Positions 28,433 to 48,105 of a stretch of DNA of 64,000 nt are shown here, one piece after another. The DNA comes from Thermoleophilaceae bacterium (GTDB lineage: Bacteria > Actinomycetota > Thermoleophilia > Solirubrobacterales > Thermoleophilaceae). A model generated the notes under the pieces. It was not told the DNA's origin. It made no database searches and worked only from the letters and a program-made list of their open reading frames with translations. The position numbers and the translations under genes are program-made. The stretch's first letter is position 1. Each line of letters opens with the position of its first letter. The stretch is from assembly GCA_040901445.1 (NCBI GenBank), contig JBBDYQ010000002.1, positions 1 through 64,000 on the forward strand, read 5' to 3'.

Positions 28433-28541
28433 GCTGCCGCACCTCCGGTAGGCAACCAGCGCTCCGCCGACGAGGGTCTACGCGCCGCCGCCGCGTAACA
28501 ACACGGCGAGCGCCTTGCCGCATCCGGAACGCCGAGAGAGA

Positions 28542-29477: not shown

Positions 29478-29541
29478 CGCCTCGCGAGCTGCCGCGCAGA
29501 CGCTATGGCCAAGGCGGCACGTCGCCGGTAAACGCTCGCAC

Positions 29542-29570
29542 TTGATCGGCGTCGCTTTCCCCTAGATAGT
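29542..29570 (+). promoter_or_regulatory. Promoter of the second HNH gene
   Basis: TTGATC (29542-29547) and GATAGT (29565-29570) are separated by 17 bases, the best-spaced promoter-like pair in the window. The start codon lies eight bases after the -10 box, so the transcript would have almost no leader. Confidence 0.5.
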
Positions 29571-29578
29571 CCCGATCA

Positions 29579-30490
29579 ATGGCCGCGGTGGACCCGGACC
29601 ACGCTCTGCGAGTTGCTGCTCAGGAGCAAGTGCGGCGGCTGCAACAGCTGTACGACGACGTCGTGCCGCGTGCGGCCCTACTAGAAGGCTTCCGCTTCGG
29701 TGGCGAACGCATTAGTTTCGGGTCGTTTCAGAAGGGGATCCACCGCGCTAGGCAGCAACGGGGACCAGCAGCACTGACGCTCGTCACCTCTCCGAATTCT
29801 CCGTATGACGACGTCGTCGATGAAGAAGCAGGCGCGATCGTCTATGCATACCGAGAAGGCGCGTTGACGCAGGCCGACAACCGGGCACTCGATGCGGCCT
29901 TCGAGTTGCAAGCGCCGCTCATCTACTTCAAGGGCATCGACCGAGGCCAGTACGCCGTTGTACAACCAGTCTTCGTCACCGACCGCGATCGAGAGACCAG
30001 GGTCGTTCTGCTGGAGCCCGGACTTCCAGTCGCCGACTTGACGACGGAAGGACTGGTTTCACCGCGGCCAGTACGCCTCGTGGCACTACGCGAGGTCAAG
30101 GTGAGGCTTGCCCAGCACCAGTTCCGACGGGATGTGATGCACGCATACCGCCAGCGCTGCGCCGTCTGCGCGCTGAAGCGGATCGAGCTGATCCAGGCCG
30201 CACACATCCTCGAGTTCGCGAGCGAGGGAACGAATGAGGTGACGAACGGCGTCGCGCTGTGTGCCATTCACCACCTCGCCTACGACAGGAACCTGCTCGG
30301 CATCGATCCGACTGGGGTTGTTCACATCGCCCGCGCTCTGCGAGACGAGAAGGATGGTCCGATGCTACGGGAGGGGATCCAGTCGTTTCACGGGATGGGC
30401 ATCAAGCTGCCAACGACGCCCACGCAACGTCCGGACCCTGAGCGCCTCGCGCAGCGTTTCGAGCGTTTCGCGCGGGAAGACGCCGCTTAA
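29579..30490 (+). CDS. HNH endonuclease with SRA-like N-terminal region
   Basis: This 303-residue protein has an N-terminal region (about 45-150; ISFGSFQKGIHRARQQRG, SPYDDVVDEEAGAIVYAYREG) with the strand order of SRA-like modified-base readers. The C-terminal HNH carries structural Cys residues: CAVCALKRIELIQAAHI, then TNGVALCAIHHLAYDRN. With the previous gene it makes a pair of distinct HNH nucleases. A is more common than usual here (29701-29760 is 35 G+C of 60). Restriction of incoming DNA is the likely role. Confidence 0.78.
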   Translation: MAAVDPDHALRVAAQEQVRRLQQLYDDVVPRAALLEGFRFGGERISFGSFQKGIHRARQQRGPAALTLVTSPNSPYDDVVDEEAGAIVYAYREGALTQADNRALDAAFELQAPLIYFKGIDRGQYAVVQPVFVTDRDRETRVVLLEPGLPVADLTTEGLVSPRPVRLVALREVKVRLAQHQFRRDVMHAYRQRCAVCALKRIELIQAAHILEFASEGTNEVTNGVALCAIHHLAYDRNLLGIDPTGVVHIARALRDEKDGPMLREGIQSFHGMGIKLPTTPTQRPDPERLAQRFERFAREDAA

Positions 30491-33700: not shown

Positions 33701-33904
33701 CGGATCCGGCGCCGCGCCGATCAGCAGGCGAGTCGGGCGACCGTCGGCGATCTCAGCTAGATGATGGAGCCCGCCGAGGTCAACGTACCCGGTGGCAACC
33801 GAGAGCGGATGCCTCCCATCGACATCCTCGATTAGGTAAGCGAGTGCTGCTCCGTGGCGGCTGTGATCGCCGAGGTTGTCGAGGAGGTAGGGACGTGAGT
33901 TCAC
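30719..33904 (-). CDS. PLD-like nuclease fused to SNF2-type helicase
   Basis: This 1061-residue protein has a phospholipase-D-like domain at the N-terminus (about 1-220), with HGKAYLFGD and TSANLTGAG, the H-x-K and G/S-x-N pattern. A superfamily 2 SNF2 helicase follows: Walker A GVGTGKTE (about 262), DEAH (about 345), LLTATPINNG, and C-terminal motifs STDVLSEGQNLQ and QRNGRVIRLRS. The last 250 residues are helical and charged. The GTG start overlaps the methyltransferase stop (GTGA). This fusion would couple DNA translocation to phosphodiester cleavage. DISARM keeps PLD and SNF2 as separate genes, and its DrmA/DrmB genes are absent. Confidence 0.9.
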   Translation of the reverse strand: MNSRPYLLDNLGDHSRHGAALAYLIEDVDGRHPLSVATGYVDLGGLHHLAEIADGRPTRLLIGAAPDPGLGAQLPPMDRFRLQLERLRGERDFSRFPPSRAARRLQAVERWIARPEIEVRRYVSQFLHGKAYLFGDAGDARVALVTSANLTGAGMDRNLELGLANYDVPVARDAVAWFDGLWQQAAPFEEDLRDLLFPDAGVVDPRTVYLRALLELHAPEPDDPLRPSRPTGLELAPFQRDGYERARVIARAHGGVVYADGVGTGKTEIGLAFIEERTKEDGVFALVITPAQLARRWRERIDQTKLPAQVVSFQELSADEQLVPEAPNRRRHLNNAKDSYRVVVVDEAHALRNEDTTWYRAMERLVGGTQKQVVLLTATPINNGLWDLYNLVMLFARHDRAFAGAGIDSVRNLFLAAGANERDPESLNPDVLYPLADAVSVRRDRAFIEREYEDATFPDGTPVRFPAPRLTTRRYDLDSAHPGVFEAITEQIDALTMARYRPSAYELDAEETSVEAQLGGLLKSGVLKRFESCWKACLETVENMLAAHDAFLLGWQRGEVLSREQLRAAATAEFDDTGLAGWLDQQLEGADGVRPAVEFDPQYGDAVAEDRSRLAAIRDELGQLDAATDPKLALLRALLEASPAAKIAVFSTFGATVRYLDQHLPEEIGGRGRIAVIGGETTPDQRLEALGRFAPHTVVRPDYVPPSGEVDLLISTDVLSEGQNLQQAQAVISYDMPWNPQRVVQRNGRVIRLRSEHDEVLLTTMLPEQGELERLLGLEARIQGKIKAASGVYGMESQVIEGLEVELRQYAERLAGGDEELLDEAEESSGAFIGEELRRLIDRAAAEGEVERVLALPWGVGACFRQAAGGRSQGAAGVFFATRTPAMPDADEGYRYWRYVELPSGDLVTSDLEILRRIDPSGGEPAELEGVDLEVAWRIAFPSIVVEHNQRADLRGDQEQIGPKQRWALEVLRDPSVGLPPGADLADEALSVERSSAVRRALGDVQDRVRAAEITLEEAAVQIVAVVDDFGLQPVEPPPLPEKIEEEDLGVVCWMAVLPAA

Positions 33905-36900
33905 GGCTGTAGCTCAGCGAGTCGCTCGCGCACGGCCTGGCGATAATCCTCGGGAACAGCATCCAGGGTGAAGTCGGAGAAGACGATCTCGAGCTCATCA
34001 GCCGTCAGGGACCAAGCGCGCGCCGCGTGCGCGTCGATCTCGACGCGAAGGCGCTGCCGCTCGTCCGGCGCGAGCGGGCCGAGAGCGACCCCAGTGGCCG
34101 CGGCGAAGTCTGCGAACCGCTCGTCGGGGCATGAAAGGCGGGCGGCGGCGTTGGCGACGGCTTCGAAGGTGTCGTCGTCGAGGCTGGGGAGGTGCAGGCC
34201 TTCGAGGATGAAGAAGTTGAGGTTTCGCTCAACGGATCGGCGTGCCTGCCAGTCGAAAGCCAAGCTGTTCAACAGTGCGAGGCACGCCGCCTCGGCGCGC
34301 GCGTCGGGATCGGCAAAGACGAGGTAAGGCGCCTTGTTAGTGAGGAAGTGTTTTGGGGGAACAAGGCAGGCGATCACGGTACGGAGGTTCTCGCGATTCG
34401 CCACGTCGCGGAAGGCCAGTCTCGCGGCTCGAAACGTCCGGTCCGTCGCGTCGCGGCGCACGGTGACCGGGAGCTCCTTGGCGATCAATGAACCAGCACC
34501 GGGGCGCGACTTGCGGGCCTTCGTAAGTGCTTCGTCACTCGCGGGACAAGGCCGCTCGCCCGCGCCATGTGGGTCGAACTGGTCGAAGCTCTCGCCCTTC
34601 CACAGCATGCGGCCCGAGTCGGCATCTCGCCAGAGATCCCGGTCGGTCGTCTCGTTGAAGTCGCCCTGCACTGGAAAGCAGAACCAGCGTCCGGCTCCAT
34701 AGGGAAACGGGCGACCGGAACGAAGCTTGGCGAGGACGTCGGCGGCGGCCTGCCCCTCCAGTAGTGGGATCTCCAGCGCCGGACCGAGCGCCGCGCGTGC
34801 AAGCCGCAAACCAGGCGCACCGACCTGCTTCGCGAACTCCTCGGCGGACGCAGCCACACCCGCGACCTCAACGACTTCGTCGCCTTCCGCGCGCCGACGC
34901 TCGGCCGCCAGGAGCGCGACGGTGTACTGCGGATGGCTATCGAAGGCCCAGACTCGGTGATTCACCAGGAAGTCGATCCGCCTCGGCGGCGCCTGCTCGA
35001 ACAGCCACTCGCGGAAGGCCGCCGAGCCTTTTGCGAGGAAAACGGAGCGAGGCAAGACGACACCGAGCCGTCCGCCAGAGCGCAGCAGCTCGCGATAGCG
35101 CTGGCAGAAAAACTCGTAGAGGTCGGCGTTACCAGGGCCCGCCACATAGCCGCTTTCCGGCCCGAGTGAGACACGCAGCCCGGCTACTCGCATGCGTTCG
35201 GCGTTGAGCCGTTCAACCACCTCCGGCCGTTCCTTCAGCAGCTGTTCGACCGCGACATGTCGCTCGCGCTCGGACAGCGACTTCAGGCCGGGGCGATAGT
35301 AGGCGTAGAAGGTCAGCTCATCGACGTTCACCTCCTCCCAAGGCGGATTGCCGACGATCACATCAAAGCCAGGGCGCTCGCGCGCGAAGACCTCGGCGAA
35401 CGCCAGTGGCCAGTGCAGGACGCGTTGCTCGGCCGCCAACTCCACCGCCTGGTCCGCGAGCAGAGACGACTGCCCGGCAATGATTTCTCTCCCCTCCAGT
35501 AGCGCCTCCTCCCGGGCGCCCACGAGGCCGAGCGGCTGCGCCGTCCAGAGGTTGAGCACGCGCTCTGCGCCGGCCACACGTCGGTGCAGCGCTTCATCGG
35601 CCGCACGGCTGCGCTCGACATCGTCGGGAGTTCGGTCGTCGATCTCACGCAGCGCGGCGGCCTCGCGCCCAGCGTCAGCAATCGCCGTCTGCAGCGCGTC
35701 CCCGAACATCACAATCTGGCCGTGCTCCGTGCCGGGCGGCGTGACCGACTCAGGGCGTGCCACGCCGATAAGGGAATTGCCTACCTGGACGTTGTGATCT
35801 AAGTACGCCAGGGAGAGCCCGGGGACGAATGAGCTAAGCCATAGCGATACCTTCGCGATCTCTGCGCCCATCGGCGAGAGGTCCACGCCGTAGATGCAAC
35901 GCTTGAGCGCGAGCCGCTTGATCAGCGCCGTGTCCTCGATCCCTGCACCAAACGTGCGCCCAGCAGCCGCGTGCAGCGAGTCGAGCTCGTCGCGCACTGC
36001 AGGAAGCGCCACCTCGCCCAAGAGCGCCGCGATCTGATCCGCCAGCTCCTCGACCACCTCCACCAGGAAATGCGCGCTGCCACAGGCGGGGTCGAGCACG
36101 GAGAAATCGAACAACCGCGAGGCGGCCGCCGCCGCATCGCGCTGGGCAAGCTCCCGCACTTCGGCCAAGTGCGCCTCGAACGCGGGCCGCACCGCACCGC
36201 GCACTAGGTGGCGAACCAGCTCGGTACGGGTGTAGTACACGCCGCCGCCCTTGCGGCCGCCCTCGTTCGTGAGCCAGAGCAGCTCGCCTGCCGCGAACTC
36301 GGCCTCCTCCTCGTCGGCCGCCACGTAACGGTCGCGCGTCGCGTCGTACCTGAAGTGGCGGTCCGCGACTGAAAGGCGCAGGGAGAGCAGTCCCTCATAG
36401 ATGTGGCCGAGGTGCCCGATCTCGAGCCCGGAGAAGTCGATCCCCACGTCCGGCTCCTCGGGATCGCGGGCGAGCGCCACGAGTGCCGGGGCAAGTGCGG
36501 CGTCAGGAATGCGGGCTGCCTCTAGCGTGGCGCCACCGTCAAAGCCGTCGGGCGCGAACAGCGCGCCGTTGTATGCGGGAACGCCCCAGGCGGTCTGGCC
36601 TGTGCGCATGGCATCGACGAGCGCGACGATGTCACGCCACAGCGTGGTGGCTTTCTCATCTGCCTGCTCTAGCTCCTCGGCGGCGCGCTCGGCGATGCGG
36701 GTGAAGCTCCGTTGCGCGTAGGTGTGATTCGACATCGGCAGGTGGCCGGCACTCTCGGCGTAGAGCAGAAAAAGCGCACGAAAGACAAAGGTGAGGGCGG
36801 CAGCCTCGAGTTCGGCCCGAACCGCGTCGTCGGCAACGTCGCGGCCGTCTGACCGTGCCCAGCGCCCGAGCTCGCGCCCGAGCACCGGCAGGACGTCCTC

Positions 36901-37818
36901 GCGAAGAGCGCGATCCAGCCGAAGCCGAAGCCGGGCGCCGTAGTCGCGAGCCTCGCGCAACACGTCCTCGAAGCCGCCTTCGGCTAGGTACTCCGGTGCC
37001 AGGAGCCCGAGGAGCGGGCGGTCATCCGAATCGAGCACAGAGGAGTCGAGTTCGAGGTAACGCGTGGCGGCACCCGCCTCGTCGGTACCAGCCCGCAACA
37101 ACCGGATCCGGGACCCGGCAGCCAACATTCCGTAGGCGGCTCCCTGGGCGAGGCAGTCGGCGATGAGCGTGCCCTCCGGCAGCCGCCCGGCTTCATCCAA
37201 GCGGGCGAACTGATCTGCCGATTTGCGCGGGTGGACCACGATCACCGGACGTCCAGCGGCGCTCGCGAGGTACCCCCGCCGGGGAAGCCCGGACACCTCG
37301 TAGCCCAGCGAGGTCAGCACCTCGCGCCAGCCCTTGGGCGGCACGCGCTCTCCGAGTTGCGCGAGTTCGGCCCATCGAGCCGATCGGCGAAGGCGCTCTC
37401 CGTACAGATGCCGGGTCCCAAGACCTCGCACCGCAAGCCCGGCGACGCCTTCGGTGTCGAGCCGCTCCACCTCCTGCGCGACCTCGCGGATTGCTTCCAG
37501 TCTCTTGAGACCGACACTGCGCGACACGAGTTCGAGGAGAGATTCGCTCCTGATCCGCCGTACTGGTCCATCGGCCTGCGGGCCAAGCACTTGCAGGCGC
37601 CCGGGCTCCTCCACGTCGTCGGCGATGAGGATCAGCGGCACGGCGCCCCCGCCGCGCCGACGTTTCCAGGCGGTGCGAATTCTCGACTCCTCGCGCGCGG
37701 CGGTCATCGCGTATTCCACGCCGTTCACGAGCCGGCTGGCGAGGATCCCGTCGGTGGCGCCCGCGTCCTTGGTGCCTGCCAGCGATGCGATGCCGTCGAA
37801 GAACTCTTCGGCGTTCAT
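33901..37818 (-). CDS. Large N6-adenine DNA methyltransferase (Eco57I/PglX-like)
   Basis: This 1305-residue protein has an N-terminal helical region (1-480) and a class I methyltransferase core. Motif I is VLDPACGSAHFL (about residue 574) and motif IV is VGNPPWEE (about 823). GGVYYTRTELVRHLV precedes motif I, as in Eco57I and PglX enzymes. The C-terminus (about 1000-1305) probably recognises DNA. No clear nuclease motif was seen, so it is likely a methyltransferase partner of the PLD-helicase, not a type IIG enzyme, though this cannot be excluded. The start is the ATG at 37818; a longer frame from 37902 is possible. Confidence 0.9.
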   Translation of the reverse strand: MNAEEFFDGIASLAGTKDAGATDGILASRLVNGVEYAMTAAREESRIRTAWKRRRGGGAVPLILIADDVEEPGRLQVLGPQADGPVRRIRSESLLELVSRSVGLKRLEAIREVAQEVERLDTEGVAGLAVRGLGTRHLYGERLRRSARWAELAQLGERVPPKGWREVLTSLGYEVSGLPRRGYLASAAGRPVIVVHPRKSADQFARLDEAGRLPEGTLIADCLAQGAAYGMLAAGSRIRLLRAGTDEAGAATRYLELDSSVLDSDDRPLLGLLAPEYLAEGGFEDVLREARDYGARLRLRLDRALREDVLPVLGRELGRWARSDGRDVADDAVRAELEAAALTFVFRALFLLYAESAGHLPMSNHTYAQRSFTRIAERAAEELEQADEKATTLWRDIVALVDAMRTGQTAWGVPAYNGALFAPDGFDGGATLEAARIPDAALAPALVALARDPEEPDVGIDFSGLEIGHLGHIYEGLLSLRLSVADRHFRYDATRDRYVAADEEEAEFAAGELLWLTNEGGRKGGGVYYTRTELVRHLVRGAVRPAFEAHLAEVRELAQRDAAAAASRLFDFSVLDPACGSAHFLVEVVEELADQIAALLGEVALPAVRDELDSLHAAAGRTFGAGIEDTALIKRLALKRCIYGVDLSPMGAEIAKVSLWLSSFVPGLSLAYLDHNVQVGNSLIGVARPESVTPPGTEHGQIVMFGDALQTAIADAGREAAALREIDDRTPDDVERSRAADEALHRRVAGAERVLNLWTAQPLGLVGAREEALLEGREIIAGQSSLLADQAVELAAEQRVLHWPLAFAEVFARERPGFDVIVGNPPWEEVNVDELTFYAYYRPGLKSLSERERHVAVEQLLKERPEVVERLNAERMRVAGLRVSLGPESGYVAGPGNADLYEFFCQRYRELLRSGGRLGVVLPRSVFLAKGSAAFREWLFEQAPPRRIDFLVNHRVWAFDSHPQYTVALLAAERRRAEGDEVVEVAGVAASAEEFAKQVGAPGLRLARAALGPALEIPLLEGQAAADVLAKLRSGRPFPYGAGRWFCFPVQGDFNETTDRDLWRDADSGRMLWKGESFDQFDPHGAGERPCPASDEALTKARKSRPGAGSLIAKELPVTVRRDATDRTFRAARLAFRDVANRENLRTVIACLVPPKHFLTNKAPYLVFADPDARAEAACLALLNSLAFDWQARRSVERNLNFFILEGLHLPSLDDDTFEAVANAAARLSCPDERFADFAAATGVALGPLAPDERQRLRVEIDAHAARAWSLTADELEIVFSDFTLDAVPEDYRQAVRERLAELQP

Positions 37819-38059
37819 CAGGCGGATGAGTACCCGTCGCGGCGCACGCCGCGAGGCTAGCTCACGGACCGGAGGCAGGCGGCGCGCGACGCGGTGGGGC
37901 ACATGACGTAACGCGCCGGCGCGACCATTCTCGCCCCCAGGACGTGGCGTTGATTGCCGGGAAGACTCTCATGCGGCCTGGCGCCGCGTTCGAGGCTAAT
38001 CCCTCCGAGGCGATGACTAATTGCGAGACGCCCGGCCAGGCGTGCGAACCCTCACCCAC

Positions 38060-39265
38060 TCAGACTTGAGGGATCTCAGCTCCTTGCTCGGGCTGACCTT
38101 GCAGTCGACGATCGAGGACTACGTGCGCGAGGTTGTCGATCTCCTCGAGCACGCGTTCGGGTGATTGGTCAAGGGTGAGGGGATGGACATGCAGGACCTT
38201 GTTCACGGCGCGGACGTGCCTACGACTGCTCAGCCCAGTGGCCGAGACGAGGAAGCCGGATCTAGGCCCGAACTCGAGGAGATAGGCGAGCAGTTGGTAG
38301 GCGTCTCCGCCGAGATCGTCCCCGATCCGCTTGAACTTCGCGTCCAGCACGCTCACCGGCTGGCCGTCATGCACGGCGACGAAGTCGGGCTCGAGACGGA
38401 GAGTGCTCTCGCGGTCGAGTGACCGGCCCGTCGGCAGGCGAACTAGGCGCGCGCCCCGACGGCGAAGGGCGTCCCCGAGGGCGACATTGACGAAATCCTC
38501 GAACACTCGGTGCAACTCGAACGCGAACGTGACGGATCGGACCGCACCGGCCCGGCTGCTGATCGAGGTGCCGCGCAGCACCAAGTCTGCGACTACGAGG
38601 GCCGGCTCATAGTGTCGGTTGAGGCGCGTTATCGGTGGAATCCTCAGCGAGCGGAAATCCGGGACTGGTGTGACGCCGTCGAGCATCCCGATCATGCGCC
38701 GCAGTCGTCCACGCACCGTCGGTGCGACTAGAGGCACGCGCACGAGCAGCCGCGCGGCAGCAAGCAGGATGCGGTTCTCGACGACGTCGATGTCGTACTC
38801 GTCACGCGCGACCAGGATGGGCAGTTGCAGTCCGCCGCGCGCGAGCTGTTCGCCGAGTCGCAGGCGTCCGCGCAGTACATGCGTCGCCTCCTCGAGCCGG
38901 CGATAGCCGCGCAATGGCCCGGCTCGCAACGCCTGCTCCGCGGTGGCGGTAAACCCCCAAGAGGCAGCCGCGAGCAGCGTTGTCGTTGTTGCAAAGCTCG
39001 CGTAACTCGTGCGCCATCCCTTCGGATCGCGGGCATACGTGAGCAGGAACATGACCTCGTAGATGTCGAGGTGGGACATGACCCGGAGCTCCCACCCAGG
39101 TGCCGCGGCGACGCCGACTGACGTGAGGCCGCGCAATGAGTACACGCCCGGCAGTGCGCTCACCTCAACCCGCACGAGGCCAGTGGCTTGGAGATCAGCT
39201 GCTTCTCGGGCGCTCAGTTCGTACTGTCGTACGCCCCAAGTCGGAACCTCGAAGAGGCGGCTCAC
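38060..39265 (-). CDS. mcrC: McrC-like restriction endonuclease subunit
   Basis: This 401-residue protein has an N-terminal McrC-like region (about 1-200; YSLRGLTSVGVAAAPGWELRV) and a C-terminal PD-(D/E)xK nuclease core. EPDFVAVHDGQPVSVLDAKFKR (about 288-310) gives the acidic residue followed by D-x-K. The GTG start overlaps the McrB stop (GTGA). As in McrBC, the nuclease would act when the AAA+ partner translocates after reading modified DNA. It ends 241 bases before the methyltransferase start. Confidence 0.88.
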   Translation of the reverse strand: MSRLFEVPTWGVRQYELSAREAADLQATGLVRVEVSALPGVYSLRGLTSVGVAAAPGWELRVMSHLDIYEVMFLLTYARDPKGWRTSYASFATTTTLLAAASWGFTATAEQALRAGPLRGYRRLEEATHVLRGRLRLGEQLARGGLQLPILVARDEYDIDVVENRILLAAARLLVRVPLVAPTVRGRLRRMIGMLDGVTPVPDFRSLRIPPITRLNRHYEPALVVADLVLRGTSISSRAGAVRSVTFAFELHRVFEDFVNVALGDALRRRGARLVRLPTGRSLDRESTLRLEPDFVAVHDGQPVSVLDAKFKRIGDDLGGDAYQLLAYLLEFGPRSGFLVSATGLSSRRHVRAVNKVLHVHPLTLDQSPERVLEEIDNLAHVVLDRRLQGQPEQGAEIPQV

Positions 39266-41370
39266 TCGGCGGCCGGCCCGCCCTCGACGACGTCCGCGCG
39301 ACGGGTCGCCTCGGCGCGAACTACGTCGAGCCCAAACTGGGCGCGGACATCGACCTCTGTGCCATGGAAGCGCTCGACCAGGAGCGGCAGGATGTCGAAT
39401 TGCCACACCGTCTCGAGGTCTGGTGCTGTGCCCTCGCGGTTCATGAAATACGACGGCCCGATTGCGAGGTCGCGCTCGCCATCGGCTTCGAGCAAGATCT
39501 CGTTGAGTGTTTCGAGCAGGACCTGCGGCTCGGGATCGAGGTTATGCCGGTTAAGCCACCGCTCCAGCAGCCCGTGAACCGGCGCAGAGTGCGGAGAGAG
39601 CTCGAGGAAGGCAAAACGCCGGCGTAGCGCCGCGTCCAGTAGTGCGATCGAGCGGTCGGCTGTATTCATGGTCCCAAGGACGTACAGATTCGGCGGCAGC
39701 CGAAACTCGTCGTCGGCGGAGTACTGAAGCCGCATTGGCTCATCCCGATACTCGAGGAGGAAGTAGAGCTCTCCGAAGATTTTCGGCAGATTTCCGCGGT
39801 TGATCTCGTCAATAATCAAGAGGTGCGGCTGGTGGGGCCGGGTCGCCGCGAGGGCGCTGAGTTCCCGGAGCGGCCCGTGGGTGAGGACGTACGCCAGAGA
39901 ACGGTCCGACGCCGGCGCAGGACGGTAACCCTCAACGAAGTCCTCGTATGTGTATGACGGGTGGAACTGGACGAGGCGCACTGCATCCGGGTCGAAAGCG
40001 TGCAACGCGATGCGGCGCGCGAGCCACGTCTTGCCGGTCCCCGGCGGCCCGTAGACGACTACCTGACGGCGAGTTGCGAGGAGATCCACGAGCTGCTGGA
40101 GAGCGCGCTGGGGCATCAAGAGATCGGCTGCGAGCTCCGCGGTGACCGCAGGCAAGCGGGCCTCGGGCCTCGCCCCGGGTGGACCAGTAATCGGCCCGCC
40201 GTCGCCTGGCACGGAGTCCGCCGCGACGCGCAGCGCTTCGACAAGTGGAGCCCAGGACCCCACGCTTTCACCCCGAGCGGCGAGACGCACGGCACCCTGC
40301 CGGATCAGCTGCTCCCATCCGCTCGTCGTTCCGAGGATGTGCTGCAGACGCTCGAGCAGGTCGGGGTCGGGTTCAGGAAACGTCGTCACGCCATCATCGC
40401 GACCCTCCGTTTCGGACGGCAGGGCGGCACTCGCGCGCGCCACTAGGTCATCCCACTCAGGGCTGGCCGCGCCGTCCCAGACTGGCCGAACGGCGTCGTC
40501 GTAGGGCTCGGCGATCGTTACTGGGAGGCGCGAGTTGAGGATCTCGCGAACGGCCAACAGCTTGCGCTCCTCGTCAGGAGCCGCGGCGACGAGCGGAACG
40601 GCACCGAAGCTCCGAAGCAGCTTGTCGCGATGACCGCCCGAAATCATCACGTCGAAGGAGTCGGGGAAGCACGCGTGGAGCACGGCGTTCGCTTGAAGCC
40701 GGTCCGTACTCGTACGCACCGCGACGACGAGGTCACGGAAGCGCCAGGCATCCTCGAAGGCCGCGGTGCCCGCGCTGCGGACCTCCTCCTTCGCCCGCCG
40801 CGCAAGCTTCAACAAGAAGCGAACGTATGCGTCGCGGTACGACTTACCGGGGCCGTAGCTCGCGATCCCACCGTCGAGGATCTCATGGAGGTTGTCGGGT
40901 ATTCCGACGCCCTCGGGAAGGAGATCGAGCAAGGCACCAAGGTTCGTTCTCTTGGTCGGAGCCCCCGTGTCGCGTTCACCGAGGTATTCGACGTACACAA
41001 TCTCGACACCGAGTTGCCGCACGACCGGCGGGTGGTCGGCTAGCTGGGTGCGGAGCTTGTCAAAGAATGTCCCGCTGCCGAGCAGCTCAACACCAAGAGT
41101 CGTTTGAAGCGTCTGGAGGTTGTCAGCGGTCCAGACCGGGCCCTCGGAAAAGATCGCCCCGTCTTCGATAAGGCAAGTGCGGCGCCAGCGATCGAAGAAG
41201 TCGTAGATCTCGGGGCGACACCATGCGGCTCGCGGCATGGGGTGTGACGCTAACTCACGCGGAGCTGCCAGTCGACACTCGGGCGCCGGAATAAGGTGCA
41301 GCTGGGACCCATCGGCACCCAACGGTGGGCCCTCAAGCCGAGGATTAGCGTCCAAGACCATTGCGCCCAT
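39262..41370 (-). CDS. mcrB: McrB-like AAA+ GTPase subunit
   Basis: This 702-residue protein has a variable N-terminal part (about 45-400) that should hold the DNA reader, and a C-terminal AAA+ module. Walker A is YGPPGTGKTW (about 440), Walker B is LLIIDEINRGN (about 515) and the McrB signature is TMNTADRS (about 568), followed by the DAALRRRFAF arginine-finger segment. I keep the longest start; an ATG at 41238 (MPRAAWCRPEIYDFF) is equally plausible and gives a conventional N-terminus. Nothing in the N-terminal region matches known base-reading folds by eye. It pairs with McrC through GTGA. Confidence 0.9.
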   Translation of the reverse strand: MGAMVLDANPRLEGPPLGADGSQLHLIPAPECRLAAPRELASHPMPRAAWCRPEIYDFFDRWRRTCLIEDGAIFSEGPVWTADNLQTLQTTLGVELLGSGTFFDKLRTQLADHPPVVRQLGVEIVYVEYLGERDTGAPTKRTNLGALLDLLPEGVGIPDNLHEILDGGIASYGPGKSYRDAYVRFLLKLARRAKEEVRSAGTAAFEDAWRFRDLVVAVRTSTDRLQANAVLHACFPDSFDVMISGGHRDKLLRSFGAVPLVAAAPDEERKLLAVREILNSRLPVTIAEPYDDAVRPVWDGAASPEWDDLVARASAALPSETEGRDDGVTTFPEPDPDLLERLQHILGTTSGWEQLIRQGAVRLAARGESVGSWAPLVEALRVAADSVPGDGGPITGPPGARPEARLPAVTAELAADLLMPQRALQQLVDLLATRRQVVVYGPPGTGKTWLARRIALHAFDPDAVRLVQFHPSYTYEDFVEGYRPAPASDRSLAYVLTHGPLRELSALAATRPHQPHLLIIDEINRGNLPKIFGELYFLLEYRDEPMRLQYSADDEFRLPPNLYVLGTMNTADRSIALLDAALRRRFAFLELSPHSAPVHGLLERWLNRHNLDPEPQVLLETLNEILLEADGERDLAIGPSYFMNREGTAPDLETVWQFDILPLLVERFHGTEVDVRAQFGLDVVRAEATRRADVVEGGPAAE

Positions 41371-41449: not shown

Positions 41450-42283
41450 GTGTTCGCCGATGATCGCGTCCGCATACGGAGGCAACCGCTCTCTGACGAC
41501 GTCAAGCTCGCGCGATGTCGGCAGGACGAGGCCGACGGGGCCAACGAGTCCCTCGTGACCTCTCGAATCCGGGTGCACCTCGAGGTGACCCAAGCCGTGC
41601 TCGACAGCCTCCGCGAAGATCATCAGCTTCTCGTCGAGGAAACCGACTTCGAACCGCTGCAGAAGACACGCCAGGGCGCGGCATGGTTGATCGCAGGCCG
41701 GTGCATCTCTCTGGGCTATGCAGTGGTTCTTTGCGTGCGGGCCGGCCTCACCACCGACATCGCCCCGCTCGCACGCATGCTCCATGAAGCCACCGGCGCG
41801 CTTCGGATCATGCTCGACCGCGAGGAGACAGACCTCCACCGGAAGTGGCTACGCGACGGCTACTTCGCACCGAAGGAGCTACAGAAAGCCCAGAAACGGA
41901 TGGAAGACCGCGCGACGGCCGACATGCTCAGGCACGGCGTCCTTCCGCCGGGCCGAACCAACGATCTCGACCGACAGCTGTACGGCCACTGGTCGCGAAT
42001 CGCTCACAACCGACGCTCCGGGATCATCGAGAGCTACCGACCCGACCTCCGCCGGTTCGTCGCCGGGCCGCATTCGGATGCCCTCTCACGCGCAGTGTGG
42101 GCCGGATACGGAACGCAAGTCCTCTACGAGCTCACTGTGACCGTCGGGGCTGCCCTCGCCAAGATGCTTGGACCTGGCCTGTGGGTTGCGCGGATCGAGC
42201 CGGCGACCACGGCGCTTGACCAGATCCAGCGGGACCACCCGCTGGATCCCGCATCGCTGGGATTCGGCGACCATGGAGACTGA
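41450..42283 (+). CDS. Helical protein, possibly HEPN-like (DUF5677-like)
   Basis: This 277-residue protein starts at GTG; a second start at 41555 (VTSRIRVHLE) is possible. The core (about 60-240) is all-alpha, with TRQGAAWLIAGRCISLGYAVVLCVRAGL, PLARMLHEATGALRIM and LYGHWSRIAHNRRSGI. The last segment, an R-x-x-x-H (RIAHN), is the type of motif seen in HEPN-fold RNases and in DUF5677-like proteins. This is a fold suspicion, not an assignment. It stands just before the kinase-methyltransferase operon and is divergent from McrB, so it might be the effector. Confidence 0.6.
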   Translation: MFADDRVRIRRQPLSDDVKLARCRQDEADGANESLVTSRIRVHLEVTQAVLDSLREDHQLLVEETDFEPLQKTRQGAAWLIAGRCISLGYAVVLCVRAGLTTDIAPLARMLHEATGALRIMLDREETDLHRKWLRDGYFAPKELQKAQKRMEDRATADMLRHGVLPPGRTNDLDRQLYGHWSRIAHNRRSGIIESYRPDLRRFVAGPHSDALSRAVWAGYGTQVLYELTVTVGAALAKMLGPGLWVARIEPATTALDQIQRDHPLDPASLGFGDHGD

Positions 42284-42357: not shown

Positions 42358-44673
42358 ATGTCCGAGCTCGAGCCACGGTCGAGCGCCGCACCCCCCGCAC
42401 GGTCCGCTGGTGACGCAGACCGATCGCTTCGCGGCGACGCCGAACACGAGAACTTCACCGTCGACACCGGGCTCTTTCGCGAACTCGGCGAGCTGCTAGT
42501 CGGACGCGACTCGACGGCGCTCGTGGAGCTGATCAAGAACGCGTATGACGCCGACGCGAGGTCCGTGACTGTCGTCGGGCACAACCTCGACGACGCCAGG
42601 CAGGGGTTGATCATCGTCTCGGACGATGGGAACGGAATGACCATCGAGGAATTCCGCAAGGGATTCCTCCGTGTTGCCTCGCGTCTGAAGACCGGAGGGG
42701 ATCGTCGCTCGCCGACATACCAACGGCGCTTCACGGGGGCAAAGGGGATTGGGCGCTTGGCGGCCCACAAGCTGGCTCGCGAGCTCACCGTGGACTCTCG
42801 ATCGGCCATGGACCATGTGCCCCACGCTGAGGCCCGAAAAGTCGGCGGCAGCCTGCTGGCGACAATCAACTGGGACGAGGTCGAGCGCCACGAGACGCTC
42901 GAGAACGTGGGCGATGCGATCTCGATTCGCGAACGCGACGTCAGCGAAGGCGATGCATGCGGAACGACGATTCGGCTCGCCTCGCTTCGCCGCGCATGGA
43001 GCGACCGTGAGCGAACGCGATTCGTGCGTGAGGTCAGCACCTTTCAACCAGGGGATGCGCTAGGGGACCCCATAGCGCCGAAGTACGTTCAGCCGTTGTT
43101 GTTCGACGTGCCGCGATTGCGCGACGCCCAAGTGCCGGCCGACCTATCCGTCACGCTAGGTGGGGACTTCGATGTCGGCGAGGACTACAGCGTCGATCTG
43201 CTTGCCGCGGCGGCGTGGGTCATCGAGATCGATGCGCACGGGGGTGACGTCCACTACGCGGTCGCGCCTACCGCGACGTACGCTCGTAAAGAGAAGCTGG
43301 ACGCGACTCCGCACACCGCCACGACCCGCCGAGACCAACCGGGCGCCGAGTTCCAAGCGCGGATCTTCGTCCGCGCGGGCAGTGCGCCGCAAGGACTTGG
43401 CGATGCATACGGGGTCAGGGTCTACATGGAGGGCTTCCGTGTGCTCCCCTACGGCGAGGCGGGCGACGACTGGTTGGACGTCAACCGCCGCTACGCAATG
43501 CGTGGCCGTGGCATCCCCTTCCATGGCACCATCGACGATAGCGCGCTGGCCGCCCTTCCCGATCGAGAGGCCGGGCTCGTCGCCGTGCCGCTCCGGAACA
43601 TCTTCGGCGGCGTCTTCCTCACCGAGAGGGGTGCTCCCAGCTTGCGGATGTTGGTCAACCGCGAGGGCTTTGTTCCCGACGAGTCCTTTCTCGAGATTGC
43701 CGACGCGGTCAGCAATGGCCTTGCGCTGCAGACCCGGCTGAGCGCCGCGCTCCGGCCTGATCGCCGGGAACGGGGTGCCCATGTCAAAACTGGCGACTAC
43801 GAGGAGAGCGAGGAGAGCGTCGAGGGTCGGCCCGCTCGCCAGGCCCTAGAGACCGTTCTAGAGGGGATTCGCGCCGTTACGGCCCAGCCCGAGGTCAGTG
43901 TCGCAATCCGAGAGCAGCTCGCGGTCGCCGAAGACGAGCTCGAACGCGTGCAAGCGGACGTCCTCGATGAGCAGGCGATGCTACGTGTCCTTGCCTCGCT
44001 TGGCACGCAGACCGCCGCGTTCGTCCACGAGGTGGGGGCGGCCCTCGGCTCCATCGGCTCCCTCAAGCGGACAGTGGACGCGATGTTGCGTAGGGCGCCA
44101 GGTCCTAAGGAAATCGCCGAGTTGCAACGACGTGTCGATGCCCTGCAGCGAACCCTCGAGCGCCAGTCCGCCTACCTCGTCGAGATCGTTTCCCCGGACG
44201 CGCGTCGCCGCCGCTCGCGACGTCGGTATCGACAGCACTTCGACATTGCAGCCCTTCTGTTGCAAGACGCCGCCAGCCGGGAGGGCATCACGCTTCGCAA
44301 TGAGATTCCGGAGGACCTGAAGACGCCACCCATGTTCCCGGCCGAGATCACGTCGATCTTTACCAACCTGCTGTCCAATGCCATCAAGGCGGCCGGGCAC
44401 AGCGGCCTTGTCGAGGCGCGCGGGTCACGTGTCGACGGTCGCACAGAGATTGTCGTACAGAACACTGGCGTAGCCGTCGATCTCGATACTGCTGGCGAGT
44501 GGTTCGATCCTTACCGCTCGACGACCGCCGTGGTTGACCCATCGCTCGGCCACGGCATGGGCCTAGGACTGACGATTACGCGCGCGATGCTCGCCGAATA
44601 CCGGTGTGAGATCGCGTTCACGCAACCAGAGGGCGACTTCAAGACTGCCGTCAGTCTGAGTCTCCCCGCATGA
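42358..44673 (+). CDS. Dual-GHKL ATPase and histidine kinase
   Basis: This 771-residue protein contains two ATP-binding GHKL modules. The first (about 30-200; ALVELIKNAYDADA, SDDGNGM, TGAKGIGRLA) is MORC/Hsp90-like. The second, at the C-terminus (about 640-770; NLLSNAIKAAG, GHGMGLGLTITRAM), is of histidine-kinase type, preceded by an H-box-like FVHEVGAALGSI (His about 555) on a helical hairpin. No membrane segment is present, so it senses something in the cytosol. A GATACT box lies six bases before the ATG. The receiver gene follows through ATGA. Proposed role: sensor kinase for phage or DNA state. Confidence 0.8.
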   Translation: MSELEPRSSAAPPARSAGDADRSLRGDAEHENFTVDTGLFRELGELLVGRDSTALVELIKNAYDADARSVTVVGHNLDDARQGLIIVSDDGNGMTIEEFRKGFLRVASRLKTGGDRRSPTYQRRFTGAKGIGRLAAHKLARELTVDSRSAMDHVPHAEARKVGGSLLATINWDEVERHETLENVGDAISIRERDVSEGDACGTTIRLASLRRAWSDRERTRFVREVSTFQPGDALGDPIAPKYVQPLLFDVPRLRDAQVPADLSVTLGGDFDVGEDYSVDLLAAAAWVIEIDAHGGDVHYAVAPTATYARKEKLDATPHTATTRRDQPGAEFQARIFVRAGSAPQGLGDAYGVRVYMEGFRVLPYGEAGDDWLDVNRRYAMRGRGIPFHGTIDDSALAALPDREAGLVAVPLRNIFGGVFLTERGAPSLRMLVNREGFVPDESFLEIADAVSNGLALQTRLSAALRPDRRERGAHVKTGDYEESEESVEGRPARQALETVLEGIRAVTAQPEVSVAIREQLAVAEDELERVQADVLDEQAMLRVLASLGTQTAAFVHEVGAALGSIGSLKRTVDAMLRRAPGPKEIAELQRRVDALQRTLERQSAYLVEIVSPDARRRRSRRRYRQHFDIAALLLQDAASREGITLRNEIPEDLKTPPMFPAEITSIFTNLLSNAIKAAGHSGLVEARGSRVDGRTEIVVQNTGVAVDLDTAGEWFDPYRSTTAVVDPSLGHGMGLGLTITRAMLAEYRCEIAFTQPEGDFKTAVSLSLPA

Positions 44674-45770
44674 ACGACAGCGCGCGAGAACCGTTCGTCG
44701 TCATCGTCGACGACGAGCCCGACAACGTGCAAGGCCTGGCTGCCGATCTCCACAAGACTCTTGCGGTCCAGGTCCTTGAGCCGCAAGAGCTAGACGAGCC
44801 TGCGCTTCGCGAGGGCACTATCTTTCTCGTTGATCTGTTCCTCACGGATTGGCCGGGCCGCGAGGAGCTGACCCCTGGCGCCCAGGTCTTCGATGGTGTC
44901 GCCCTCGCAGCGGTCATTCGGGCGCATGCGCGAAACGCAAGGCGTCCCCCGCCCATCATCGCGCTCAACACCGGGCACGCCGGCGATTTCTCCGACCTAC
45001 CCGTGGAGATCCGTGAGCACGCGATAGCGCGAGCCAACAACCTCGAGTGGGTCTTCCTCAAGAACGATTCTCGCTCAAGCATCCCCACGCATGAGCGCGT
45101 CGCCGAGCTGGCCGAAGCGCAACGACGGTTGCCACGAGACTGGCGCGAGGCGGCGGCTGAGACGGACCTACTTGAACTCCTCGGAGCGCGCGAGTCCGAA
45201 CTCGACGAAATTCTCGACGCCTGGCCACCCATCCGAGAGGTCAACACGGACACCGCCGGCGTCGCGATGTTGCGCTGGCTGCTGCATCGGGTTCTTCCGT
45301 ACCCGTGCTTCCTACTCGACGAGCGCCATGTCGCGGTGCGTCTAGGCCTGTCATGCAGTGCGTTGAACGCAGCCGCCGAGGGCGGCAGCAAGCTCGCCGA
45401 AGCGCTCTCGCGGTGTAGCTATAAAGGCGTCCTCGCGGGGTTCGACGGACCACGCTGGTGGCGCTCTCGGATCGAGGAGATGCTCTGGGAGCTCTCGCCA
45501 AGCCGCGATCTGCCGACCACGGTCGCAGCCCTACAGGCGTTGAGCGATGTCCCTCTCGAGCGCACCGAGACGCCCAACGGCGTGGTCGTTCTCGATGCGG
45601 ACTACACGCCCCGCCCCGAGCCGGCGGACGTCGCGGAGGCAGTGCGCATCCGACTCGACGACTGGCCGCCCTACGCGGAAGACGCGTGGGCCTCAATCGA
45701 CGACGCCCGAGAAGATCCGCGCCTACGCGACCGGGTACTGCCCCTGGACCGCGCGCGCCTCGACGTGTAG
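44670..45770 (+). CDS. Receiver-domain protein with unknown output domain
   Basis: This 366-residue protein begins with a receiver fold: FVVIVDDEPDN (acid pair at 14-15), FLVDLFL (phospho-acceptor Asp about 55), ALNTGHAG (switch Thr) and FLKND (Lys about 131). The remaining 230 residues have no family I recognise (LLHRVLPYPCFLLDERHVAVRLGLS, YKGVLAGFDGPRWWRSRIEEMLW). The start overlaps the kinase stop (ATGA). It is the obvious phospho-acceptor of that kinase. There is no HTH, so the output is probably protein-protein and not transcription. Confidence 0.78.
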   Translation: MNDSAREPFVVIVDDEPDNVQGLAADLHKTLAVQVLEPQELDEPALREGTIFLVDLFLTDWPGREELTPGAQVFDGVALAAVIRAHARNARRPPPIIALNTGHAGDFSDLPVEIREHAIARANNLEWVFLKNDSRSSIPTHERVAELAEAQRRLPRDWREAAAETDLLELLGARESELDEILDAWPPIREVNTDTAGVAMLRWLLHRVLPYPCFLLDERHVAVRLGLSCSALNAAAEGGSKLAEALSRCSYKGVLAGFDGPRWWRSRIEEMLWELSPSRDLPTTVAALQALSDVPLERTETPNGVVVLDADYTPRPEPADVAEAVRIRLDDWPPYAEDAWASIDDAREDPRLRDRVLPLDRARLDV

Positions 45771-45775
45771 GCAAA

Positions 45776-46474
45776 ATGCGCTTTGAGCTCGAGACTCTTG
45801 TCGAGGAACTTCAGCTAGTTCGAACGATGGCCGAGCCGTTCCTCGAGCCTCAGAGCTTCTGGGAGCTGGAAAGGGCACGCGCCCGGCTTCGGGCGGTACC
45901 GATCGGGGAAGCGAGCTCCTGGGCGATCGACACCCCGCTACGAACGGTCCCATCGTTCGGCGCGTACGCCCAAGACGGACTCGGCGAATACACGGTGCGC
46001 GCCAGCATTCGCACGCTCTGGGAGATAACGCGGACCGACCGCCGATACGTGAGTGTTCGCGACAACGTCTCCACATCGATATCCATTTCGACCGAGCAGA
46101 CCTCGTCCCAAGACGAGTGCGAGATCGCTCGCTGGACCATGGATATCGCCGCTGTCGATTCCGCCCCAGGTTGCGGCCTTCACGCACAGGTCAAGGAGAG
46201 CCCAGACTGGTTCCCGACCGGCTTGGATGTCCCCCGTCTCCCGCTCTTCATCCCGACGCTTGGGGCGGTCTTGGAGTTCGTGCTCGGTGAGCTCTTCCAG
46301 ACGGAATGGACGAGGCGTGTAAGTGCACATACGGCAGCTCACGGCTGGCGCGCGATTCAACGCCTCGCTTGGGACCGCTGGCTGAACTGGCAAACGGAGA
46401 TCGTCCGCACCTCCGCCGTGTCCCCATGGCTCGACATCAAAGCTCGGCGCTGCAACGAACTGGATGAGCACTAA
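45776..46474 (+). CDS. Unknown protein of the kinase-receiver-methyltransferase operon
   Basis: This 232-residue protein lies five bases after the receiver gene and its stop overlaps the methyltransferase start (TAATG). It is soluble and mixed alpha/beta; Trp-rich segments (AHGWRAIQRLAWDRWLNWQ) stand near the C-terminus, and a central run (SVRDNVSTSISISTEQTSS) looks like a strand pair. I recognise no family. The tight position between receiver and methyltransferase marks it as an essential component, maybe an adaptor. Confidence 0.7.
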   Translation: MRFELETLVEELQLVRTMAEPFLEPQSFWELERARARLRAVPIGEASSWAIDTPLRTVPSFGAYAQDGLGEYTVRASIRTLWEITRTDRRYVSVRDNVSTSISISTEQTSSQDECEIARWTMDIAAVDSAPGCGLHAQVKESPDWFPTGLDVPRLPLFIPTLGAVLEFVLGELFQTEWTRRVSAHTAAHGWRAIQRLAWDRWLNWQTEIVRTSAVSPWLDIKARRCNELDEH

Positions 46475-48105
46475 TGGAATCCTCGGCGGCCGTCAGCCCG
46501 CGCCGCGCCCTTGGCGCCTATTACACGCCCACCGACATAGCGGCCAGCCTCACGAAGTGGGCTCTGCGCGGCAACGTCGGGCCGGTGCTCGATCCGTCCT
46601 ACGGCGTCTGTCGCTTCCTCACCGCGGCACTTGATGTCCTGAAGACCGAGGGTGCGACGTATCCCGAACACCTCCTCCACGGCATCGATGTCGACGCCGC
46701 GGCGACAGCCCCTACGACCCAGGCACTCCTCGCGCAAGGAGCGCGGCCGGACCAGTTTGTGCATCGTGACTTCTTCAAGGTCCCTGCGGAACCCGTCTTC
46801 GCGGCTGTATTGGGCAACCCCCCGTATGTAAGGCACCACTGGCAGCGAGAGGCGGTCAAGCGAGCAGCCGGCATTGCGATGCGCGACGCTGGAGCGTCCC
46901 TGTCGCGGCGTGCCAGTCTGTGGGCACCTTTCGTCGTGCATGCAGACCGCTTCGTGCGCGCCGGTGGCCGAATGACGATGTTGCTACCGGGTGCGTCAAT
47001 CCAAGCGGATTACGCCAACGCCGTCTGGGAGCACCTCGCGCGACGGTACGCGGCAGTCACGCTCGTTCGCGTCGGCGAGCGGATATTCCCCGACGCGCTG
47101 GAGGAGACGGTGGTGCTTCTCGCCGGCGGCCGTCGGGAGTTCGCGCGCGCAACACGATCCCCGCTGGTCGCCGAGGTCGCCTCGTTCGCGACGCTCGTGT
47201 GTGACCTCGACGCCGATCCAACGGCAGAGCAGCTCCGGAAACGAGCGCGCGGACTCGAGAATGCCCGGAGCAACCTCACCTCGCGCCGCCTTCGCGGCAT
47301 CGCCAGAGAACATGACGCGTCCTCTCGACTGGGCGAGGTCGCCGACATCAGAATCGGGACCGTCACCGGGGCCAACGGCTTCTTCGTCCGGACACCGAAT
47401 GACGACCTAGTGCGGGCGCTCCCAGCGGAGGAGGTGGTCCGCGTTGTTCCCGGATCGCACTCGATGTACGGCGCCACCTGGCGAGAGGAAGACGACAACC
47501 TTTCGTCGCGAGACGGAAAGCGCTGCCGCCTTCTGCGCCTTGACTCCGCGCGGCGGTTGAGAGGCAAGATCGCCGTGGCGATCTCGAGCGCTGAAGACGA
47601 CAAACTTGACGAGCGGTCCCACTGCCAGCGTCGCACCCCGTGGTGGGCTGTAGACCCCGGGGACCCACCCGATGCGTTCCTCGCTTACATGGCTGGCGCT
47701 CCCAGGGGCCTCGTGTTTAACGAGATGCAAGCGTGCTGCATCAACGGCGTGCATCGGGTGACCTGGAAGGTGGACGATGCCCAGGCCTACGTGCTCTCGA
47801 CGTGGACGTCGCTATGGGCGCTTGCGGTGGAGCAATCCGCTCGGCACTACGCGGGCGGAGTGCTCAAGCTCGAGCCTGGAAAAGCGCCCGACCTTCCCGT
47901 GATCAGACACGACGATCTCGAGGCTCTAGATGAATTGGATGAGCTCCTACGCAGCCAAGGCATCAAAGCGGCGCGCCGGTTCGCCGATGATCTCGTGCTC
48001 CGCGGCACCCTTGGATGGTCTCGGCAGCAGCTCAGCGCCCTGAGTACGGCGGCCGATCATCTCGCACAAAGACGATCGCCAAGGATGCGCTCCAGAAGCG
48101 GGTAG
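46474..48105 (+). CDS. N6-adenine DNA methyltransferase (class I, TaqI/Eco57I-like)
   Basis: This 543-residue protein has ALGAYYTPTDIAASLTKWAL before motif I (VLDPSYGVCRFL, residues about 39-50, a less canonical form of DPACGSG) and motif IV LGNPPYVRHHW (about 113-121). These mark an adenine-N6 methyltransferase. The C-terminal half (about 280-543) probably recognises DNA. The start overlaps the unknown gene's stop by one base. Unlike a stand-alone restriction methyltransferase, it has no adjacent nuclease, only the kinase and receiver, so it may modify or mark DNA under signal control. Confidence 0.85.
   Translation: MESSAAVSPRRALGAYYTPTDIAASLTKWALRGNVGPVLDPSYGVCRFLTAALDVLKTEGATYPEHLLHGIDVDAAATAPTTQALLAQGARPDQFVHRDFFKVPAEPVFAAVLGNPPYVRHHWQREAVKRAAGIAMRDAGASLSRRASLWAPFVVHADRFVRAGGRMTMLLPGASIQADYANAVWEHLARRYAAVTLVRVGERIFPDALEETVVLLAGGRREFARATRSPLVAEVASFATLVCDLDADPTAEQLRKRARGLENARSNLTSRRLRGIAREHDASSRLGEVADIRIGTVTGANGFFVRTPNDDLVRALPAEEVVRVVPGSHSMYGATWREEDDNLSSRDGKRCRLLRLDSARRLRGKIAVAISSAEDDKLDERSHCQRRTPWWAVDPGDPPDAFLAYMAGAPRGLVFNEMQACCINGVHRVTWKVDDAQAYVLSTWTSLWALAVEQSARHYAGGVLKLEPGKAPDLPVIRHDDLEALDELDELLRSQGIKAARRFADDLVLRGTLGWSRQQLSALSTAADHLAQRRSPRMRSRSG

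What the first reader, a model, noticed from the sequence alone, without database searches (positions are those of the whole stretch)
42358..48105. Kinase, receiver, unknown protein and DNA methyltransferase joined as one operon
Seen: four genes with an ATGA overlap, a five-base gap and a TAATG overlap. They encode a protein with two GHKL ATP-binding modules plus an H-box-like His, a receiver protein without a DNA-binding output, an unknown 232-residue protein, and an N6-adenine methyltransferase. Known: MORC-like GHKL ATPases occur near restriction genes, and two-component-like defence systems such as Detocs exist. The linkage of a His-Asp relay to a DNA methyltransferase in a defence island is not one I can name. 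Inference: phosphotransfer could gate DNA marking or trigger an effector.
Basis: partly seen in the sequence, partly recalled or inferred. Interest (0 to 1): 0.85.

Follow-up and report, generated by a model that had tools for sequence, protein, structure and literature searches.

The report
Phosphorelay-linked DNA-methyltransferase defence operon
This is a compact four-gene bacterial operon, found in several distant phyla, that joins a two-part ATPase/kinase and its signal-receiving partner to a DNA-marking enzyme and a swappable fourth protein, which suggests a restriction-like defence whose trigger is a phosphate relay; it is a sister of a little-studied published system.

Summary
At 42358-48105 four genes run head to tail (spacings -4, +5, -1 bases): a 771-aa protein with two GHKL ATPase modules and a kinase-type His557; a 366-aa protein whose residues 6-159 model as a receiver domain; an unknown 232-aa protein (SP); and an Eco57I/TaqI-class N6-adenine DNA methyltransferase. 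Homologues found with the receiver protein alone (17 other loci, several phyla) all carry the kinase upstream and a methyltransferase next to the pair. His557 and Asp55 are invariant. The fourth gene is an SP homologue in 8 loci and an unrelated PIN-like protein, with conserved acidic residues, in 8; one contig ends too early. Kinase and methyltransferase trees agree on the main clades. Window neighbours (McrBC, SNF2 helicase plus MTase, DUF5677) do not travel with the module. The kind is not wholly unknown: a 2021 paper described HEF_HK/Response_reg_2, usually beside C5-methyltransferases. The window genes miss those Pfam models and differ in size, MTase type and fourth gene, but the kinases are homologous by profile comparison. 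Best reading: a restriction-modification-like module in which kinase-to-receiver phosphotransfer gates the fourth-gene effector. Function and phosphotransfer are untested. New variant of a known kind.

The parts
42358..44673 (+). HK: 771-aa protein, N-terminal MORC-like GHKL ATPase, middle region, H-box and C-terminal histidine-kinase ATPase
   Evidence: Pfam HATPase_c_3 and HATPase_c; NCBIfam sensor kinases and the GHKL part of BbrUII/HgiDII restriction enzymes; 20-member conservation
42514..42807 (+). N-terminal GHKL module (residues 53-150; E57, N61, D89, G91, G93, G127, G130, G132 invariant)
44026..44028 (+). H-box histidine, His557 of HK (FVHEV)
   Evidence: invariant in 20 of 20 homologues, followed by E or D
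44347..44667 (+). C-terminal HATPase_c module (residues 664-770); N and G2 boxes intact; G1 box has Asn702 where typical kinases have Asp
44670..45770 (+). RR: 366-aa receiver protein
   Evidence: model pLDDT 88; receiver-domain structures over residues 6-159
44685..45146 (+). receiver domain, residues 6-159 (D14, D15, D55, K131 invariant in 15 of 15 members)
44832..44834 (+). predicted phospho-acceptor Asp55
   Evidence: invariant in 20 of 20
45147..45767 (+). conserved C-terminal domain of RR (residues 160-366; RWW and WPP..A...W motifs), fold not identified
   Evidence: alignments A5 and A15
45776..46474 (+). SP: 232-aa protein of unknown fold, conserved in 8 other loci in the position after RR
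   Evidence: no Pfam hit; structure search without clear match
46474..48105 (+). MT: 543-aa N6-adenine DNA methyltransferase, Eco57I/TaqI class
   Evidence: profile matches BseCI, TaqI and other adenine-MTase structures
46816..46827 (+). catalytic NPPY motif of MT
   Evidence: N115 P116 P117 Y118 invariant in 15 of 15

Best explanation
A restriction-modification-like defence module whose effector is gated by a His-Asp phosphorelay. The methyltransferase marks the host's own DNA. The MORC-like ATPase half of HK acts as the sensor, probably as an ATP-dependent DNA clamp that reports unmarked or invading DNA, and switches on the kinase half, which autophosphorylates His557. The phosphate passes to Asp55 of RR. 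RR, through its conserved C-terminal domain, then releases or activates the fourth gene product: a PIN-like nuclease in one clade, SP in the clade of the window. Shown: gene order and spacing, conservation of both ATPase sites, His557 and Asp55, receiver fold (model), methyltransferase class, agreement of HK and MT trees, and the swap of the fourth gene. Inferred: sensing, phosphotransfer, direction of control, effector role of SP, and the defence function itself.
For: All 17 loci found with RR alone hold HK plus an MTase beside RR. His557, Asp55 and the ATP-site residues are invariant in up to 20 homologues across distant phyla, so both the kinase chemistry and the N-terminal ATPase are under selection. 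RR residues 6-159 match known receivers with Z up to 13.4. The fourth slot holds either SP or an unrelated PIN-like protein with conserved acidic residues, as expected for interchangeable effectors. HK and MT trees agree on the main clades. The window copy lies in a defence island; one homologue adds a Vsr-type endonuclease and a C5 MTase, two lie on plasmids, and occurrence is rare and patchy. The published sister family is enriched beside restriction-modification genes (PMC8011034).
Against: No member has been tested. SP has no recognisable nuclease motif or fold; its conserved His-x-Gln is not a PD-(D/E)XK signature. The PIN call rests on the DTGPL and GE motifs, conserved acids and one weak Pfam match (0.003). 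The kinase G1 box has Asn for Asp in 18 of 20 members. RR carries a C-terminal domain whose role is unknown. Defence-island context was examined closely only for the window copy.
Confidence: 0.45

Rival explanations
1. ATP-driven restriction machinery without phosphotransfer: the HK protein works as a MORC/MutL-like DNA clamp, its kinase-like half and the receiver serve as conformational modules only, and SP or the PIN-like protein is the nuclease that cuts unmethylated DNA.
For: The N-terminal half matches the GHKL part of BbrUII/HgiDII restriction enzymes (4.3e-21 over residues 33-221). paraMORCs sit in restriction-modification operons (PMC2292703). A GHKL-nuclease protein, VcSduA, restricts phage directly (PMC12137116). 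A nuclease-like gene occupies the fourth slot in 8 loci.
Against: Complete invariance of His557 and Asp55, with receiver D14, D15 and K131 and the kinase N and G2 boxes, is hard to explain without phosphotransfer.
Confidence: 0.25
2. Regulatory epigenetic circuit: phosphorylated RR controls the methyltransferase or its DNA access, so a signal changes genome methylation and gene expression; SP or PIN-like protein is an accessory.
For: The MTase is the constant partner besides HK and RR in all 17 loci, and its tree agrees with the HK tree on the main clades. Bellieny-Rabelo and colleagues suggest control of R-M systems for the sister family (PMC8011034).
Against: The fourth gene is also constant in presence and swaps type, which fits an effector. 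The modules are rare and patchy, two are on plasmids, and the window copy lies among restriction genes.
Confidence: 0.2
3. An ordinary two-component system that happens to lie beside a stray methyltransferase.
For: Kinases, response regulators and solitary MTases are each common (general knowledge).
Against: 17 of 17 independent loci keep the genes together, mostly with overlapping stops and starts, while other window neighbours are not kept. RR has no DNA-binding output family.
Confidence: 0.02

Closest known systems
HEF_HK (PF19191) / Response_reg_2 (PF19192) two-component-like system (Bellieny-Rabelo et al. 2021, PMC8011034)
   Same: Same HK architecture (HATPase_c_3, H-box, HATPase_c), adjacent receiver-type partner, linkage to DNA methyltransferases. 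The HK profiles align nearly end to end (probability 99.9, E 6e-31); the RR profiles align weakly over the receiver (E 3e-4, probability 39.5).
   Different: No window-family HK or RR reaches the Pfam models. Eight true PF19192 loci examined here have HKs of about 1000 aa and receivers of about 590 aa, a C5 MTase, often Vsr, and no SP or PIN-like gene. The window family has a HK of about 770 aa, a RR of about 370 aa, an adenine MTase and a fourth gene.
paraMORC / MORC GHKL ATPases of restriction-modification operons (Iyer et al. 2008, PMC2292703)
   Same: N-terminal GHKL module with intact ATP motifs, encoded beside DNA methylases.
   Different: The module here is fused to a full kinase half and paired with a receiver. 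The 2008 paper does not mention receivers.
Detocs (defensive two-component system)
   Same: Kinase plus receiver genes in a small defence-type operon.
   Different: Described as a three-gene ATP-degrading system, the best studied with a PNP effector (PMC11249213). Here there is a MORC-like ATPase, a DNA methyltransferase and no PNP.
Type II restriction-modification with Eco57I/TaqI-class methyltransferase
   Same: The MTase subunit.
   Different: No recognisable restriction endonuclease in the operon; kinase and receiver are present.
VcSduA (Shedu with GHKL ATPase, formerly paraMORC3; PMC12137116)
   Same: GHKL ATPase as a controlling module in phage defence.
   Different: Single protein with a PD-(D/E)xK nuclease domain; no kinase half, receiver or MTase.

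Membership tests
HEF_HK / Response_reg_2 system | HK matches PF19191 (HEF_HK) | tested here: not met
   PF19191 not among the families matched by any of 15 HKs at E <= 1; a distant cousin (L042) matches at 0.042, below cut-off
HEF_HK / Response_reg_2 system | Receiver matches PF19192 (Response_reg_2) | tested here: not met
   window RR none; best of 15 members 0.46
HEF_HK / Response_reg_2 system | Architecture HATPase_c_3 + H-box + HATPase_c with an adjacent receiver gene | tested here: met
HEF_HK / Response_reg_2 system | Common descent of the kinase component | tested here: met
   profile-profile 99.9 %, E 6e-31, 690 columns
HEF_HK / Response_reg_2 system | Neighbouring C5-cytosine methyltransferase (the commonest context, not universal) | tested here: not met
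   window MTase is N6-adenine class; among the 17 loci a C5 MTase was seen only in L038
Two-component system | Conserved phospho-accepting His and intact kinase ATP-binding boxes | tested here: met
   H557 20/20; N670, N674, G704, G733, G735, G737 invariant; G1 Asp replaced by Asn in 18/20
Two-component system | Receiver fold with conserved acidic pair, Asp and Lys | tested here: met
   Z up to 13.4 over residues 6-159; D14, D15, D55, K131
Two-component system | His-to-Asp phosphotransfer | not testable with these tools
   needs biochemistry
Type II restriction-modification | DNA methyltransferase | tested here: met
Type II restriction-modification | Cognate restriction endonuclease | tested here: inconclusive
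   SP has no known fold or nuclease motif; the other clade has a PIN-like protein
Detocs | Three-gene two-component defence system with an ATP-degrading (PNP) effector | tested here: not met
   four genes with an MTase; RR and SP match no Pfam or PADLOC family and HK no Detocs model; definition from PMC11249213
paraMORC | N-terminal GHKL ATPase with intact motifs | tested here: met
paraMORC | S5 domain after the GHKL domain | not tested
   middle region of HK was not modelled

The most novel reading that the evidence does not exclude
A mobile class of restriction systems in which recognition and effector are separated by a true phosphorelay: a MORC-type DNA clamp fused to a histidine kinase reads the state of DNA relative to the partner methyltransferase and fires interchangeable effectors (PIN-like nuclease, SP) through a receiver protein.
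Probability: 0.35. Interest if true: 0.85.

Novelty: new variant of a known kind. Interest (0 to 1): 0.58.

Why it matters
If the relay works as proposed, restriction need not be a direct property of one enzyme complex: the decision 'self or foreign DNA' would be passed through a phosphate signal that can be amplified, reversed and connected to different effectors. It would also give a function to the bacterial relatives of MORC proteins fused to kinases and to the published but functionally untested HEF_HK/Response_reg_2 family. The four-gene module is small and its key residues are now defined, so it can be tested directly.

Tried and rejected
(1) Chance adjacency: rejected, 17 of 17 RR loci keep HK and an MTase. 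(2) Straight membership in HEF_HK/Response_reg_2: Pfam models not matched, though profiles show kinship. (3) SP as a PD-(D/E)XK or Mrr-type nuclease because of 'HAQVK' in the window copy: rejected, the Lys is not conserved. (4) SP as a relative of the PIN-like protein: no relation seen. (5) Fold of SP: model pLDDT only 69; best Z 5.0 to an actin-capping protein, not meaningful. (6) Weak RR hits L006 and L007 (E about 7e-4): short C-terminal stretches in unrelated frames, discarded. Weak hits L026-L032 and L036-L037 covered only the first 60-90 residues (general receivers); L025 and L035 led to the distant cousins L041 and L042. (7) No relatives in phage records or viral contigs. (8) DUF5677, McrBC and SNF2 neighbours as part of the module: no match in any homologous locus. 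(9) Promoter and terminator scan uninformative at this GC content. (10) Literature searches found no experimental work on this module.

Full report
The window lies in a 3.5-Mb genome. Pfam gives HATPase_c_3 and HATPase_c for HK, and N6_Mtase, M_Eco57I_C and Eco57I for MT; RR and SP match nothing. The N-terminal GHKL part of HK also resembles BbrUII/HgiDII-type restriction enzymes, and the C-terminal third resembles sensor kinases such as ZraS and AtoS. As a profile the MTase matches BseCI, TaqI and other adenine methyltransferases.

Using RR as the only query, relatives were found on two plasmids, in 12 genome contigs (one of them, L008, is the same contig as L005) and in three further genomes sampled from the phyla of two of those loci, 17 loci in all. 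Neighbour analysis shows HK directly upstream of RR in all 17 and an MTase beside the pair in all 17. Two arrangements dominate. In the SP clade (window, L004, L010, L013, L014, L016, L038, L039, L040) RR is followed by an SP homologue, with MT downstream or upstream. In the PIN clade (L003, L009, L011, L012, L015, L017, L018, L019; all actinomycetes) the order is MT-HK-RR-PIN-like. L008 ends after RR. SP and the PIN-like protein are unrelated, so the fourth slot is occupied by different proteins. HK and MT trees agree on the main clades. None of the other window neighbours occurs in these loci.

Functional residues are kept. In HK, E57, N61, D89, G91, G93 of the first ATPase, His557, and the N and G2 boxes of the kinase ATPase are invariant in 20 homologues; His557 is always followed by Glu or Asp; the G1-box Asp is Asn in 18 of 20. 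In RR, D14, D15, D55 and K131 are invariant in the 15-member alignment, and D15 and D55 in all 20. The RR model (pLDDT 88) gives a receiver fold over residues 6-159 (Z up to 13.4 to HupR, HemR, NtrX and others), followed by a conserved C-terminal domain that was not identified. MT keeps NPPY in all 15. The SP model is of moderate confidence and gave no meaningful structural match.

Prior art: Bellieny-Rabelo et al. [quoted passage not shown] They proposed control of R-M systems and kinship with paraMORC ATPases, without experiments on function. None of the 15 HKs or RRs here matches those Pfam models at a meaningful level. Eight real PF19192 loci were fetched for comparison: HK of about 1000 aa, receiver of about 590 aa, a C5 MTase and often Vsr, but no SP or PIN-like gene. 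Profile comparison shows that the two HK families are homologous nearly end to end, while the receivers share only a weak similarity. The window module is therefore a separate branch of the same broad kind. L038, with SP plus a 479-aa adenine-type MTase, a C5 MTase and a Vsr gene, and the distant cousins L041 and L042 connect the branches.

Context: the window copy is at the edge of a 20-kb stretch of lower GC (0.65-0.68 against 0.70-0.73) that also holds two HNH genes, an SNF2-type helicase (best hits HKD+Snf2 and DrmD) with an Eco57I-type MTase (best hits type IIG and DrmMI), and McrBC, which is a defence island. RR relatives are rare and patchy: only the window's own genome among 199 genomes of its class, and one other true relative among 396 genomes of its phylum.

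Mechanism: the constant parts are a DNA methyltransferase, a MORC-like ATPase fused to a kinase, and a receiver; the variable part is the fourth protein. The simplest reading is that the MTase marks self, the ATPase half senses foreign or unmarked DNA, the kinase-receiver pair transmits the signal, and the fourth protein acts. Every step after gene content and residue conservation is inference. Two rivals are kept: direct ATP-driven restriction without phosphotransfer, and phosphorelay control of the MTase itself.

Noticed in passing
30719-41370 (-): Defence island left of the module: SNF2-type helicase (DrmD and HKD+Snf2 similarity) with an Eco57I/DrmMI-like MTase, then McrBC; the helicase/MTase pair may be a DISARM-like or type IIG system.
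   Followed up: partly
41450-42283 (+): Gene with weak DUF5677 similarity just upstream of HK on the same strand (about 75-base gap, HWSRIAHNRR stretch); it could be co-transcribed, but it is absent from the homologous loci.
   Followed up: partly
28515-30490 (+): Two consecutive HNH-nuclease-like genes similar to PADLOC HNH models.
   Followed up: no
28000-48200: GC content falls to 0.65-0.68 against 0.70-0.73 on either side, consistent with an acquired island.
   Followed up: no
L004:13500-14429: In the Rhizobium sp. TH2 plasmid a GIY-YIG nuclease gene follows SP by 12 bases, a possible fifth component.
   Followed up: partly
L038:6889-14109: Locus with HK-RR-SP plus Vsr, an adenine-type MTase and a C5 MTase, bridging the window family and the published C5/Vsr-linked family.
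   Followed up: partly
L041:925-5999 and L042:3355-8822: Distant cousins with MTase-like gene, HK, RR and a small SP-like protein sharing an [YL]H[FY]D...AHP.FH.Q motif; the module family is larger than the 17 loci counted.
   Followed up: partly
42358-44673, codon 702: Kinase G1 box has Asn instead of Asp in 18 of 20 homologues, which might alter nucleotide use.
   Followed up: no
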